Positions 1,197 through 43,994 of a DNA stretch of 44,520 bases are shown piece after piece (the first letter of the stretch is position 1; every line of letters starts with the position of its first letter). The notes beneath the pieces were generated by a model. That model made no database searches and was not told where the DNA came from. It saw only the letters and a program-made list of their open reading frames with translations. Source of the stretch: a virus; IMG/VR virus record IMGVR_UViG_3300050821_005195, positions 1 through 44,520 of that record; one strand, given 5' to 3'. The position numbers were made by a program, and so were the translations under genes.

Positions 1197-1822
1197 GGTC
1201 GGTGGTAGAACGGGGCAGCCGGGTCGGTGAGCGAGACGGCTGCCCATTCCTTCGGTTCGATTCCCAATCTTTCCACCACACTCGTGGTGATTTCATCCTG
1301 ACAACTAATCATCTCCGAGGACTGGTCTTCCCCCGGTTTCAAGAACGGTGGCCAGAACCGTGGGTAGAAAAACTTCGTCTCGTAAACGGGGTCCAAGAGC
1401 AGATTCGAATCCACGATGGCTTGAGCCGCGTCACGCCGGAATCCTATCGCGGGACCGGCGAGCACACGTTCTCCGTGGTAGTTGTAGCGAAAAGCCGAGA
1501 ACACGGGAGCGTCGGGGAGGTCAGCCTCACGGTTGATGTGAGTGTCCGGGTCCACTTTGACAACCAAGTCGTGGTCACTTGACAACAAGATTTTGAGGAA
1601 TCGTTCCGTCCAACGACCGGCGCTCGACGGCAGCTTGAGTCTCGTGCCAAAAATGTGCTCGACACCGACAGACTTGCAGAACAGGTCGTAGCCCGGGTAG
1701 CCGGTGCCATCCGAGATAGACACGATGCCCGCCTCGGGATACCAGAACTTCAGCGCAGCTATGCACTCGGCGGCAAGCAAGTGGTCTCTATACGTGTTCA
1801 CGCAGAAAAGCAAGGGCGGCAT
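1193..1822 (-). CDS. Glycosyltransferase-like protein (GT-A type)
   Basis: Encodes 209 residues. The N-terminus (residues 1-45: LLFCVNTYRDH, then AALKFWYPEAGIVSISDG) looks like the nucleotide-binding half of a GT-A fold. VKVDPDTH near residue 92 supplies a DxD-type metal/sugar-nucleotide motif. The C-terminal half has GPAIGFRRDAAQAIV and a SCQDE segment that could complete the active site. It is last in the minus-strand operon behind two sigma-like genes. Its ATG lies 35 bases inside the preceding gene, and a TTG three codons later is an alternative start. In phages such enzymes modify host surface glycans or virion components; which applies here is unknown. Its position near attL would suit lysogenic conversion. 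Confidence 0.7.
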   Translation of the reverse strand: MPPLLFCVNTYRDHLLAAECIAALKFWYPEAGIVSISDGTGYPGYDLFCKSVGVEHIFGTRLKLPSSAGRWTERFLKILLSSDHDLVVKVDPDTHINREADLPDAPVFSAFRYNYHGERVLAGPAIGFRRDAAQAIVDSNLLLDPVYETKFFYPRFWPPFLKPGEDQSSEMISCQDEITTSVVERLGIEPKEWAAVSLTDPAAPFYHRP

Positions 1823-2294
1823 CCTTTGACTTCTGGATTTCGGGCACCGACTTCCCGAGGATGTCGGCTACGTCTTGTTCCGAGAGTTCGTCAAGCATGA
1901 GGTAGGAGAGGATTTGTACTTGGTCGGGCGGGAGGTTGGAGAGGAGTCGTTCGGTGTCAATGCGATTCTCGATTTGGGTCGTGACCGAGTTCGGGTCTTC
2001 GATGTCAAAGTTCGGCCCTCCGGCCCCGATGGGGTTGTCACTCGTGAGAAACCGCTGGCGGTAGCGGAACTCTTTCTTGATGGCGTCCCGCATCGCGTTG
2101 TTGATGCAAGTGCGAATAAGCTGTGGCGTGACCCGGTAGCCGTTGTCGAGGGCGCGAAACATGCCAAGAAAGCCTTGTTGAGCCACGTCGTCCTTGATGT
2201 CCGGGGGCAGCGAGAACCGCTCAATCATCGAGATAGCGATGTGGAACACCAGTCGGTGGTATTGCTTGTAGACATCCTTCTGTTGCCGGGTCAT
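1788..2294 (-). CDS. Sigma-70-like factor B (ECF-like)
   Basis: Encodes 168 residues with the layout of a minimal sigma factor. A region-2-like helical segment lies at about 10-55 (YHRLVFHIAISMIERF, then DDVAQQGFLGMFRAL). A region-4-like HTH lies at about 115-165 (LPPDQVQILSYLMLDELS, then QDVADILGKSVPEIQKS). The central linker is short, as in ECF factors. It is translationally coupled to the upstream sigma-like gene by TAATG. Phage sigma factors redirect host RNA polymerase to phage promoters (T4 gp55 and SPO1 gp28 are known cases). The repeated GGCGTTCTATT and TCAGTANTAT words elsewhere in this genome are candidate targets. A regulator with a sigma-like fold but another role is possible. Confidence 0.8.
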   Translation of the reverse strand: MTRQQKDVYKQYHRLVFHIAISMIERFSLPPDIKDDVAQQGFLGMFRALDNGYRVTPQLIRTCINNAMRDAIKKEFRYRQRFLTSDNPIGAGGPNFDIEDPNSVTTQIENRIDTERLLSNLPPDQVQILSYLMLDELSEQDVADILGKSVPEIQKSKDAALAFLREHV

Positions 2295-39934: not shown

Positions 39935-40111
39935 TTATATTACTGAGGTTTTGCGGCGCACACCCCAATAAGTCGTGTACAACGCTTTCACGACCGTGGG
40001 ATGCAAGCCCGTCATCGCCGCTACCTTGGCGATGCCGAGTCCAATCGAGATGAGGCGAAGCGCCTCTTCTCTCTTGGCGAGTTCTACTTCTTGTTCGTCG
40101 TCGTAGTTCAT
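39935..40111 (-). CDS. Small HTH protein, putative regulator
   Basis: Encodes 58 residues from ATG 40111, chosen for its strong GGAGGG site; ATG 40147 would add 12 residues. REEALRLISIGLGIAKVAAM and TGLHPTVVKALY form a helix-turn-helix of the homeodomain-like/transposase kind. It ends in a basic tail. Together with the sigma-like genes it is one of few visible DNA-binding regulators in the phage. It may control the right-hand module. Confidence 0.68.
   Translation of the reverse strand: MNYDDEQEVELAKREEALRLISIGLGIAKVAAMTGLHPTVVKALYTTYWGVRRKTSVI
39937..39951 (-). promoter_or_regulatory. Promoter-like element A3 (TCAGTAATAT)
   Basis: Minus-strand AAACCTCAGTAATAT overlaps the last codons of the HTH gene. 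It shares TCAGTA-TAT with A1, A2 and A4; TAATAT is a good -10. A chance match inside coding sequence cannot be excluded. Confidence 0.4.
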
Positions 40112-40143
40112 GAGTAGACCCTCCATGGGTCTACTGGTGGGTT

Positions 40144-40512
40144 TCATAGTCGGATTTCTTCCGCGTTACCGAAGATGTTCGGCACGGGATTGACCTCGGC
40201 CCACAACCAAGACATCCATTCCGACGAGCCTGTATCATCCCACCGCAAAGACCGACGCTCGACGAAGCCCGCCAAATCCAATTCTTTTTCGCAAATGAGA
40301 TGGCAATAGAGGCTGCAAATCCCATCGGGGTTTTTAAGTCCGCGTTTGTCGCCGGTAGGAGACTTGAATCTCATCTCGTTCCAAATCGCTTTCACGCTGT
40401 AGCGGGGCAAGCCGAGGCTCTTGTAGTGACGGAGACAAGCGACCATCTCCGTGTAGGCTTGGGGATGGGCACGGTGGTACTCGATGAATTTCAAGAAGGT
40501 TTCGCGGTTCAT
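40144..40512 (-). CDS. Conserved phage/plasmid protein of unknown function
   Basis: Encodes 122 residues from ATG 40512 (ATGA overlap with the previous gene). FLKFIEYHRAHPQAYTEMVA, then YSVKAIWNEMRF, then the segment ending in YCHLICEKELDLAGFVERR follow the pattern of a family found in many phages and genomic islands (H-x-x-NP-x-V-Y, YS-x-x-x-I, YARL). It is helical and suspected to be DNA-related, but no function is established that I can name. Confidence 0.68.
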   Translation of the reverse strand: MNRETFLKFIEYHRAHPQAYTEMVACLRHYKSLGLPRYSVKAIWNEMRFKSPTGDKRGLKNPDGICSLYCHLICEKELDLAGFVERRSLRWDDTGSSEWMSWLWAEVNPVPNIFGNAEEIRL

Positions 40513-41222
40513 GCGAACTCCGGGTCTACACCGCTCTCGTCGGCATCCTTGGGATTGACGACACGACCCGGGACTTCCGGCTTGTCGCCAAGCCATGTCT
40601 TGTAGCGGGGTAGAATCTTGCCGGGCTTCCCATTCACGAGCACGGATGGGGGACGAAACATCGTGTTGAATGCTTTGACCACATTGCCCTTGTTGTTGTT
40701 GAGAGCGGTTACGCATCCACTCAAGCGCACGATGAAGCGCACGCGGGATGGCGAGATGCCGCCCGCGAGTAGCTCTTCGAGTACGTCGGCATGAATCGGG
40801 AAATCGGGCGGAAAACCTGAGTCGGTTGGGGTTCCATCACACGTATCCATAGACCCTTTAGGGGAATTTGAAGTCGGAGCCGCCTTTACGTCTTCTTCTG
40901 CTTTTCCATTACCATTAACGTTATGTTTTACGTTAAGGGACCGCTCTAAGAGACCGGCTCCCGTTGGCGTCTCTAAGAGAGCGGCCAACATGGACTCTAA
41001 GAAGTCCGGCTCTAAGAGCAACTCTCTTAGAGCGCCTTTAGAGATGAGCGCCGCCGCTACATCGGCATCGCCGCCGTCCGCGTGTGGGCACCAATCCTCG
41101 CACTGGCCACGACGCCCGCAACCATCGCAAAAGGCTTGGCCATCCGAATCCAAAACGTTCCCGTTTTCGTCGGGTTCGCCGCCGAGGAATGTCGTGCCAT
41201 CGGGCGGTGGTGTCGTTGCCAT
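40509..41222 (-). CDS. Zinc-finger protein with iterons in its gene, candidate initiator
   Basis: Encodes 237 residues from ATG 41222, which has GGAG 6 bases upstream. CDGCGRRGQCEDWC (about 40-53) gives four cysteines for one zinc. The C-terminal domain (FPIHADVLEELLAGGISPSR, then VVKAFNTMF) is helical and unrecognised. Bases 40944-41043 carry five to six copies of the near-palindrome CTCTTAGAG, which read as repeated Leu-Leu-Glu, next to an AT-rich stretch. In lambda-like phages the replication origin lies inside the initiator gene, so this could be an initiator with an internal origin. That is inference only. Confidence 0.55.
   Translation of the reverse strand: MATTPPPDGTTFLGGEPDENGNVLDSDGQAFCDGCGRRGQCEDWCPHADGGDADVAAALISKGALRELLLEPDFLESMLAALLETPTGAGLLERSLNVKHNVNGNGKAEEDVKAAPTSNSPKGSMDTCDGTPTDSGFPPDFPIHADVLEELLAGGISPSRVRFIVRLSGCVTALNNNKGNVVKAFNTMFRPPSVLVNGKPGKILPRYKTWLGDKPEVPGRVVNPKDADESGVDPEFA
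40915..41043. repeat. Iteron-like repeats and AT-rich stretch inside a gene
   Basis: CTCTAAGAG occurs at 40944, 40971, 40995 (one mismatch) and 41010, and inverted at 41024, with a degenerate copy at 41035. The last pair forms a perfect 10-bp inverted repeat (41009-41033). An inverted repeat TTAACGT-ACGTTAA (40915-40936) lies in the adjacent AT-rich stretch. The layout, iterons beside AT-rich DNA, resembles phage and plasmid replication origins. Confidence 0.6.
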
Positions 41223-41359
41223 GAGAATCTCCATCCCCGCCAACATAGATTTTTGTGATGGTTAGCGGGTTAGGATTTCGGGGCGGTGGGAGGCCCCAAC
41301 CCGCTAAGGAAGGTGAACCCCCACGCCCGCACACCGAAACTCTGTGTGCATAGTACTGA
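41223..41359 (-). promoter_or_regulatory. Element A4 and structured 5' leader
   Basis: Minus-strand TCAGTACTAT (41350-41359) lies 128 bases before the zinc-finger gene. Downstream of it are a small hairpin GCACAC/GTGTGC (41329-41349) and a large one. In the large one TTAGCGGGTT (41262-41271) pairs with AACCCGCTAA (41298-41307), with inner GGGGC/GCCCC stems (41280-41297). No U-tract follows, so it is a leader structure rather than a terminator. Confidence 0.55.
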
Positions 41360-41760: not shown

Positions 41761-42909
41761 TTACTTCGCGCCTTCCGCCGCCTTGCGTAGCGTCAAGAAG
41801 GCTTCCTTCAAGGTGTGGCTGACCGCGCTCTCCGGCTCGTGTAGAACCAGCTTTTGGTACTCGTCGAGGAAGTCCGTCCGCAAGCGATGGAAGAGATGCA
41901 GGAAGTGACCGATGAACCCCAAGCATCCGAGAATCGCTATCTCGACACCACCCAAGTCCTCGTAGAGACTCACGGCGTACTCCCACACGTCGGGGTCAAT
42001 CTTGTCCGTGGTGATGAACACGTAGTGCTGAATCGTCTTCTTGTGGACCTTAATCTTCTCGATGGCGTTGTTGATGTCGCCCTTCGAGACGGCCTTCATC
42101 TTCATCTCGTAGGCGGTCACCACGTCGTCGTCGCCGACCAACGTGATTTCCAAGTCACCAGCGGCTCCGGTCTGCTTGTCGGCGGCGTTGTGTGAGTGCA
42201 CGTGCAAGACTCGCTCCCCCAAACGCTCTTGGGCAGCGTTGTAAGCTGCGGCAACGATGAGCACCGGCAGCCGTGCGGAGTTCTTGCAATCAAGGTGCTG
42301 GTGGAGAAGCCTCACAATGTCTTCCGCTGAGAGCGGTAGCTTATCCGTGGTACGTTTCAAATCCTTGAGCAGATTCTTGATGGATATGTCCCGCTTGTCC
42401 CGCTCCAGAATGAGGAGCCTCATGGTCTCATCCATGACGTTCTGCGCCGAGACCCGGTTCTTCTGGATGTCGTCGAATAGTTGGAGCACGGCCTCGTACA
42501 TTTCGGCTGGACGGCCTTCTAATTCCACGTCGGTGGTGAGCACGATGTTCTTCGTGCGGAAGCCCGGAGTCAGGAAAGCGGTCGTGGAATTGATTGGCAA
42601 CTCGTAAGGCTTGCTCTTCAAAGCCTCGACATAGCGTTCGTCGTATAGCCGACCCGAGTAATTGTCTTTGCCCGCGTCGCCGGTGATGTCGGTGTAAGGC
42701 TTCCGAATGTCTAACTTGGGGTTGTCAATCTTTGCGAGGGAGCAAGCGAGGAGCGCACGGACTCCAGCACGATTCTTGAGGCAGAGTGCTACGGTCTCGA
42801 TGCGTTTCAGGATTTTAGCGTCGGTAACGAATGGCTTCGTGAGTTGTTTCAGTGCTCGGGTGTAGGAGTCATTCAGAATCTTTGAAGAGCCATCCATTGC
42901 CGTTGCCAT
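41761..42909 (-). CDS. Putative type II restriction endonuclease (SacI-family-like)
   Basis: Encodes 382 residues. A PD-(D/E)xK-like core is visible: GDLEITLVG (251-259, Asp252) and AYEMKMK (266-272, Glu268 and Lys270). The rest is helical, with PYTDITGDAGKDNYSGRLYD (about 71-90) and LSAEDIVRLLHQHL (193-206). Its order of elements recalls proteins annotated as SacI-family endonucleases. It overlaps the end of the methyltransferase gene by 41 bases, the arrangement of a type II system with the methyltransferase first. ATG 42897 is an alternative start. Recognition sequence unknown. Confidence 0.72.
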   Translation of the reverse strand: MATAMDGSSKILNDSYTRALKQLTKPFVTDAKILKRIETVALCLKNRAGVRALLACSLAKIDNPKLDIRKPYTDITGDAGKDNYSGRLYDERYVEALKSKPYELPINSTTAFLTPGFRTKNIVLTTDVELEGRPAEMYEAVLQLFDDIQKNRVSAQNVMDETMRLLILERDKRDISIKNLLKDLKRTTDKLPLSAEDIVRLLHQHLDCKNSARLPVLIVAAAYNAAQERLGERVLHVHSHNAADKQTGAAGDLEITLVGDDDVVTAYEMKMKAVSKGDINNAIEKIKVHKKTIQHYVFITTDKIDPDVWEYAVSLYEDLGGVEIAILGCLGFIGHFLHLFHRLRTDFLDEYQKLVLHEPESAVSHTLKEAFLTLRKAAEGAK

Positions 42910-43792
42910 TCGACTTTACCGCCTTCGTCGGGTCGTAGTTAGTCCACAGGACTTCAACCCGCTTCCCCTTGGTTGCGTGATTCGTCTTCTCGGGGCTGAC
43001 GGTCTTCCACCAGTACTTAGCCGGGTACAACCTATCCATAAGGTCGCATTGGTAGTTTGAGATGGCAACCATGCCACGGCAAGCATTTAATACTTTTGCG
43101 AGGCGGCGATGTTGCTCATCAGTCATCTCGTGCCCGTAGGCTTTGGAGTCGCCTCGGGTCTCGTGGACGTATGGAGGGTCACAATAGAACAAAGTTGTCG
43201 GTGAGTCGTATAGCTCGATGACATCCTCGGCGGGACGGTTCTCAATCTGGACACGGAGCAGCCTCAGTGCAATTTTGGGGAGTGCTTCGACGCCGCCAAG
43301 CCAACGGCTAATGACACCGCTCATCCCGGCTCGGCTCGTGTCCTTGCAATTCGCCCATCGTCCGACCGATGCGGTCTGAGCCAGTCCCGTCCTGACCTGT
43401 CGTGCACGGATGTAGAACCGACGAGCACGCTCGAATGGGGAGCAAGTGGGGTCGAGTTTGCAGGCGAGCGCGAACTCCTCACGAGAGAATGGCGTCAAGC
43501 CAATGGCTTCGACAAGTTTTTCTTTCTCGTCGCGGAGCACACGGAAGAAGTTGCAAACCTCGCCGTCCAAATCGTTGTAGCTCTCGATAGCGGCTGGTTT
43601 GCGATTGAGAAGGACGGCACCCGAACCCGAGAACGGCTCGCAGTAGTGATGGCAATGCGGGAGCAAGGGGAGCAGCCAATCGAGATGGGAGAATTTACCG
43701 CCGTACCAACCGAAGGGAATGAGTTTCTTTGTGGTGAGAGAAGAGACAGCGGGCGGTGTTCCTTTTCTCAGAGCCGGTGTTGCCGATGCCAT
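42869..43792 (-). CDS. DNA adenine N6-methyltransferase (Dam-like, D12 class)
   Basis: Encodes 307 residues. Motif X is IPFGWYGGKFSHLDWLL (25-41), the AdoMet-binding motif I is CEPFSGSGAV (51-60), and catalytic motif IV is FYCDPPYV (202-209). The order X, I, target region, IV is that of class alpha (Dam/DpnM) enzymes. GAGG lies 6 bases before ATG 43792. First gene of the rightmost operon and placed next to attR; the overlapping downstream gene looks like a partner endonuclease. It could alternatively protect phage DNA as an orphan enzyme. Confidence 0.94.
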   Translation of the reverse strand: MASATPALRKGTPPAVSSLTTKKLIPFGWYGGKFSHLDWLLPLLPHCHHYCEPFSGSGAVLLNRKPAAIESYNDLDGEVCNFFRVLRDEKEKLVEAIGLTPFSREEFALACKLDPTCSPFERARRFYIRARQVRTGLAQTASVGRWANCKDTSRAGMSGVISRWLGGVEALPKIALRLLRVQIENRPAEDVIELYDSPTTLFYCDPPYVHETRGDSKAYGHEMTDEQHRRLAKVLNACRGMVAISNYQCDLMDRLYPAKYWWKTVSPEKTNHATKGKRVEVLWTNYDPTKAVKSNGNGNGWLFKDSE

Positions 43793-43908: not shown

Positions 43909-43937
43909 TTGACATTCAAACCCACCTATGCAATACT
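43909..43937 (+). promoter_or_regulatory. Outward promoter near attR
   Basis: Perfect -35 TTGACA (43909-43914), 17-base spacer and -10 AATACT (43932-43937, four of six consensus bases). It points out of the prophage across attR. In circular phage DNA the same promoter would lie about 105 bases upstream of int. Confidence 0.6.
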
Positions 43938-43968: not shown

Positions 43969-43994
43969 GGGTTCGAATCCCACCCTCTCCGCCA
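43969..43994 (+). other. attR core (26-bp tRNA fragment)
   Basis: Exact copy of bases 73-98. Only the 3' part of the tRNA is present, so this is not a functional tRNA gene. Marks the right end of the prophage. Confidence 0.93.

What the first reader, a model, noticed from the sequence alone, without database searches (positions are those of the whole stretch)
40915..41043. Iteron-like array inside a coding sequence next to AT-rich DNA: possible replication origin
Five to six CTCTTAGAG copies, four of them in the same codon phase (Leu-Leu-Glu using the TTA codon, which I see rarely here), plus two perfect inverted repeats. The repetition is stronger at DNA level than protein function requires. 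Lambda-type origins lie inside the initiator gene.
Basis: partly seen in the sequence, partly recalled or inferred. Interest (0 to 1): 0.7.

Follow-up and report, generated by a model that had tools for sequence, protein, structure and literature searches.

The report
Likely phage replication origin inside gene
A short stretch of a bacterial virus's DNA carries repeated near-palindromic boxes beside the most easily melted DNA of the whole virus, all written over a protein-coding gene, and a related virus keeps the same boxes but not the same protein around them, so this is probably where the virus starts copying its DNA.

Summary
Protein plus codon usage does not explain them: at most 2 exact boxes in 5000 synonymous recodings. 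Four boxes use the rare TTA codon; the fifth makes the same palindrome in another reading frame from rare CTA and AGA. Beside the array lies the least stable 30-mer of the 44.5-kb window, weaker than the protein requires. A DNA-only scan retrieved a related phage, L059 (terminase 39%, lysozyme 57% identical), with four such boxes at 10-bp spacing, followed on the same strand by an AACGTT-rich, easily melted stretch, but over the end of an HNH gene and intergenic DNA. The next gene there is homologous to the C-terminal domain of the window protein (E = 6e-7). So the element is conserved as nucleic acid, not as protein. Its layout, in the early module of a phage with no other recognised initiator, matches lambda- and SPP1-type intragenic origins. 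I judge a replication origin most likely (about 0.6). Function and the binding protein are untested; an operator array or a hairpin element remain possible.

The parts
40944..40952 (-). box 5, CTCTTAGAG on the minus strand, exact
40971..40979 (-). box 4, CTCTTAGAG on the minus strand, exact
40995..41003 (-). box 3, TTCTTAGAG on the minus strand, one mismatch
41010..41018 (-). box 2, CTCTTAGAG on the minus strand, exact; arm of a 10-bp inverted repeat with box 1
41024..41032 (-). box 1, CTCTAAGAG on the minus strand, exact; other codon phase, made with rare codons CTA and AGA
41035..41043 (-). degenerate box, two mismatches; may be chance
   Evidence: read
40885..40936 (.). proposed duplex-unwinding element: lowest-GC 45-mer (40885) and least stable 30-mer (40901) of the window, with TTAACGT / ACGTTAA inverted repeat at 40915-40921 / 40930-40936
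40509..41246 (-). gene that carries the element: 245-aa orphan; start more likely at 41222 (GGAG 6 nt upstream; 237 aa); N-terminal Cys-rich motif CDGCGRRGQCEDWCPH
   Evidence: no significant Pfam, PHROGs or NCBIfam match; no phage hit by tblastn; fold model too poor to use
40662..40814 (-). part of the gene that codes the C-terminal LSG/NN domain, shared with the gene just downstream of the array in L059
40144..40512 (-). next gene, 122 aa, start overlaps the stop of the array gene (ATGA); phrog_13625, unknown function; possible partner protein (inferred)

Best explanation
The segment 40885-41043 is probably the replication origin of this temperate phage, written over a coding sequence. Dimers of a phage initiator would bind the near-palindromic CTCT(A/T)AGAG boxes (iteron-like) and open the adjacent very unstable TTAACGT...ACGTTAA segment so that a helicase can be loaded. 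The best candidate for the initiator, or a subunit of it, is the protein of the same gene, through its conserved C-terminal LSG/NN domain. Shown: boxes and unstable segment exceed what the protein requires, they sit together, and they recur together in a related phage in a different coding context. Inferred: protein binding, unwinding, replication and the identity of the initiator.
For: Boxes beyond protein and codon usage, in two reading frames. Least stable 30-mer of the whole window lies 14 bp from the array and is weaker than the protein requires. L059, a phage related by terminase and lysozyme, has four boxes at 10-bp period followed on the same strand by AACGTT-rich unstable DNA, then a gene homologous to the C-terminal domain of the window protein. 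The window has no other recognised initiator, helicase loader, helicase or primase among the ORFs scanned. Terminase relatives with O-like or primosomal genes lack the array. Same layout as the lambda origin in gene O (PMC7466680) and SPP1 oriL in gene 38 (PMC6316719).
Against: The protein matches no known initiator, and binding is untested. Box spacing in the window (27, 24, 15, 14) is irregular and not helically phased. Only one independent related phage is known (L059 and L075 are near-identical), and it was found through the box itself. Folded as RNA the array is also unusually stable in both phages, so an RNA or cruciform role is not excluded. About 20 small ORFs of the window were not scanned against family libraries.
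Confidence: 0.6

Rival explanations
1. The boxes are operators: a dimeric phage regulator (for example the small HTH-like protein 39935-40147 or the array protein itself) binds them inside the gene to control early transcription, with no role in replication.
For: Each box is a near-palindrome, as dimeric repressors need; the array lies in the early region; the phage must have lysogeny control and no CI-like repressor was recognised.
Against: Operators usually overlap promoters; no promoter-like site was found at the array. An operator does not need the least stable DNA of the genome beside it. In L059 the array lies at the end of a gene, followed by the repeated unstable segment.
Confidence: 0.2
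2. The element works as folded nucleic acid: an mRNA hairpin, or a DNA cruciform, made by boxes pairing with each other, controls expression of the downstream domain gene.
For: RNA fold z-scores of -5.5 (window) and -7.5 (L059); 1 of 500 synonymous recodings folds as well; in L059 the four boxes plus GGT/ACC flanks form one long dyad; same strand in both phages.
Against: Repeated palindromes fold well whatever their role. A hairpin needs complementary arms, not the same 9-mer in each arm and in both phages. The single-stranded unstable segment beside it is not explained. No covariation test is possible with two sequences.
Confidence: 0.1
3. The array is a packaging (pac) or partition site.
For: Both kinds of site can be repeated boxes inside genes (general knowledge); L027 has a ParB_N gene near its array.
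Against: The array is about 12 kb from the terminase genes in the window and about 7 kb in L059; the window phage integrates and no ParA or ParB was recognised.
Confidence: 0.05
4. No nucleic-acid function: a leucine-rich helix whose codons were duplicated.
For: Two boxes share flanks (15 nt, 93%, spacing 27), as after a duplication.
Against: One box is made in a different reading frame from rare codons. Synonymous recodings do not reproduce the array. The array is conserved in L059, where the protein around it is different and part of it is untranslated.
Confidence: 0.04

Closest known systems
Phage lambda / lambdoid origin in the O gene
   Same: Repeated boxes inside a gene of the early module with an AT-rich tract on one side (PMC7466680); the next gene overlaps the end of the first.
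   Different: Box sequence, length and spacing differ; the window protein has no detectable O-like domain; initiator binding unknown; in a related phage the array is largely outside any conserved gene.
Phage SPP1 oriL in gene 38
   Same: Direct repeats plus an AT-rich unwinding element, placed within the gene of the origin-binding protein (PMC6316719).
   Different: No gp38, gp39 or gp40 homologue recognised in the window; no second origin found (the boxes occur nowhere else).
Box arrays inside DnaD-like replisome-organiser genes (L027; Streptococcus, Lactococcus and Brochothrix phages)
   Same: Short palindrome-like boxes at about 11 bp inside the loader gene; in L027 the box is even CTCTWAGAG.
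   Different: The window protein is not DnaD-like by HMM; the boxes of the named phages (TTGGCAACCAA type) differ; L027 shares no other detected gene with the window in the locus held.

Membership tests
Iteron-type phage origin (lambda/SPP1 type) | Array of repeated protein-binding-type boxes | tested here: met
   Four exact and one near box in 89 bp, beyond protein and codon usage
Iteron-type phage origin (lambda/SPP1 type) | Adjacent AT-rich, easily unwound segment | tested here: met
   Least stable 30-mer of 44,491 in the window, 14 bp away; more than the protein requires
Iteron-type phage origin (lambda/SPP1 type) | Cis element conserved in related phages | tested here: met
   L059/L075, but only one independent relative
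Iteron-type phage origin (lambda/SPP1 type) | Located in or next to the gene of the initiator | tested here: inconclusive
   In the same gene in the window, about 0.35 kb upstream of the domain gene in L059; that the protein is an initiator is unknown
Iteron-type phage origin (lambda/SPP1 type) | Initiator protein binds the boxes | not testable with these tools
   needs gel shift or footprint
Iteron-type phage origin (lambda/SPP1 type) | Replication starts there / autonomous replication | not testable with these tools
   needs marker frequency or plasmid test
Lambda O, DnaD-like or DUF1376-type initiator protein family | Sequence homology of the encoded protein | tested here: not met
   No significant Pfam, PHROGs or NCBIfam match; so it is not filed in any of these families

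The most novel reading that the evidence does not exclude
The shared C-terminal LSG/NN domain belongs to a new family of phage initiators that uses CTCTWAGAG boxes and a TAACGTT unwinding element, and the origin has moved between coding DNA (this prophage) and mostly non-coding DNA (L059) while its sequence was kept.
Probability: 0.33. Interest if true: 0.65.

Novelty: new variant of a known kind. Interest (0 to 1): 0.52.

Why it matters
If true, it gives the replication origin and a candidate initiator for a phage group known only from metagenomes, in which homology search finds none. It also shows one origin kept through a change between mostly non-coding and fully protein-coding context, which bears on how origins come to lie inside initiator genes.

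Tried and rejected
Protein homologues of the array gene: none in viral contigs, genome contigs or named phages, and only one insignificant plasmid hit. Structure predictions of the array protein and its neighbour were too poor to use (pLDDT 37.5 and 42.5), so no fold search was run; a profile of the shared domain found no solved structure. Rfam: only chance-level matches. DnaA boxes: one TTATCCACA, not near the array. Terminase relatives L010 and L012 have O-like or primosomal replication genes and no array, so they do not speak for or against conservation of this element. Most of the 115 contigs with a pair of boxes look like chance or long repetitive genes. L027 was kept as an analogy only, not as homology. 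GC-skew profile: no useful turning point. DNA searches of named phages with either array: nothing. Search of papers for the box sequence: only primer-like chance hits among those listed.

Full report
What the window is. The window is a whole virus record. It is an integrated prophage: tRNA-Ser(CGA) at 9-98, an integrase at 145-1041, and a 26-bp exact copy of the tRNA end at 73-98 and 43969-43994. The predicted genes right of the integrase lie on the minus strand, from a DNA methyltransferase at 43.8 kb through lysozyme, terminase, portal and capsid. The finding lies in the short early region between the restriction-modification genes and the lysozyme.

The observation. CTCTWAGAG occurs exactly four times in the window, all within 89 bp (40944, 40971, 41010, 41024; 0.15 expected). 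One further box has one mismatch (40995) and one has two (41035). The boxes are palindromic apart from the central base. The fifth (41024) is inverted and lies in another phase, where it uses the rare codons CTA and AGA. All four TTA codons of the gene are in the boxes, although TTA is 3.1% of Leu codons in the prophage. Of 5000 synonymous recodings of the protein with the phage's own codon usage, none had more than two boxes; with the gene's own codons permuted the maximum was also two. This is the only place in the window where a 9-mer, other than simple repeats, occurs four times within 130 bp. A less specific measure, any 9-mer four times in the gene, is weaker: 25 of 5000 recodings reach it.

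The neighbour of the array. The 45-mer at 40885 is the lowest in GC of the whole window. By nearest-neighbour energies the 30-mer at 40901 is the least stable of 44,491, and the best 45-mer there (40892) ranks second among all start positions. It lies 14 bp from the first box and contains TTAACGT...ACGTTAA. Of 5000 synonymous recodings, 5 were as unstable over 30 bp and none over 45 bp. So the instability is also more than the protein asks for.

Conservation. No relative of the encoded protein was found by protein searches (one insignificant plasmid hit). A scan of viral contigs for two boxes 4-34 bp apart gave 115 stretches, most of them unremarkable. Two, L059 and L075, turned out to be relatives of this phage by protein: lysozyme 57% identical in both, terminase 39% in L059. 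They are near-identical to each other and so count as one. Their array is GGTCTCTAAGAG-C-CTCTAAGAG-C-CTCTTAGAC-GC-CTCTTAGAGACC, four boxes at about 10-bp period. It is followed on the same strand by TTTTAACGTTCTTACGTTACGTAACGTTGCTAACGTTGC, with four TAACGT/ACGTTA copies within 60 bp out of six in 11 kb; this segment is among the least stable of the locus. The window has the same order on the same strand: boxes, then TTAACGT...ACGTTAA. In L059 the array covers the 3' end of a small HNH-type ORF (phrog_374) and runs into non-coding DNA. The protein encoded around the array is not shared. The gene 9246-9605 of L059, downstream of the array, is homologous to the C-terminal domain of the window protein (32% over 53 aa, E = 6e-7 for the single comparison; score 73 against a maximum of 55 in 5000 shuffles, and 75 against 41 for the next ORF of L059). 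The unit that is kept is therefore: boxes, unstable AACGTT segment, LSG/NN domain. Only in the window are all three in one open frame.

What it does. Box arrays of this kind that are kept as nucleic acid call for a sequence-specific binder, probably a dimer (inference from the symmetry). The unstable segment next to them is what an origin needs and what an operator does not. Lambda and SPP1 provide the pattern: boxes inside the initiator gene with an AT-rich unwinding tract on one side (PMC7466680; PMC6316719). In L027, an otherwise unrelated phage, an array of the same 9-mer at about 11 bp lies inside a DnaD-like helicase-loader gene; I take this as analogy only, because L027 was found by the box itself and is one of about ten array-like hits. 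Homologues of that loader in Lactococcus, Streptococcus and Brochothrix phages have a different box at the same place. Terminase relatives L010/L018 and L012/L016 have O-like or primosomal genes and no array, whereas the window has no other recognised replication gene among the ORFs scanned. This is what exchange of replication modules would give, but it is indirect. A homologue of the next gene (40144-40512) lies in the early recombination and replication region of Polaribacter phage Freya.

What is not settled. Binding, unwinding and replication are untested. The protein resembles no known initiator, and its single-sequence structure prediction failed. RNA folds are strong in both phages, but arrays of palindromes fold by themselves. 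The box spacing in the window is irregular. I give the origin reading 0.6, an operator array 0.2, an RNA or cruciform hairpin 0.1, and packaging, partition or no nucleic-acid function the rest.

Noticed in passing
41761-43792 (-): A D12-class adenine methyltransferase (PF02086, 3e-24) directly followed by a SacI-like endonuclease (PF09566, 5e-4, just above its cut-off): a likely restriction-modification pair carried by the prophage.
   Followed up: partly
1788-2294 (-): A sigma-70-like protein (phrog_1740, 1.7e-14) at the far end of the late operon, beside the integrase.
   Followed up: no
41258-41303: Inverted repeat TTAGCGGGTT ... AACCCGCTAA in the leader of the array gene; RNA fold of the leader is not unusual (z -1.6).
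   Followed up: partly
43909-43937 (+), attR 43969-43994: A good sigma-70-type promoter match points across attR; after excision it would read into the integrase gene, which in the prophage is separated from it.
   Followed up: no
1253-1278 (+): A third tRNA-3'-end-like sequence, 77% identical to the att core, just beyond the integrase.
   Followed up: no
L027:7460-7590 and L027:6717-6762: A 44-kb phage contig with about eight CTCTWAGAG-like boxes at about 11-bp steps inside a DnaD-like loader gene, and four GTTATGTTGTG repeats in the next loader-like gene: probably also an origin region.
   Followed up: partly
L059:4874-5920 (-): An RNA-guided-nuclease-like (TnpB-type, judged by eye) gene between lysozyme and a sigma-like gene of the related phage.
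   Followed up: no
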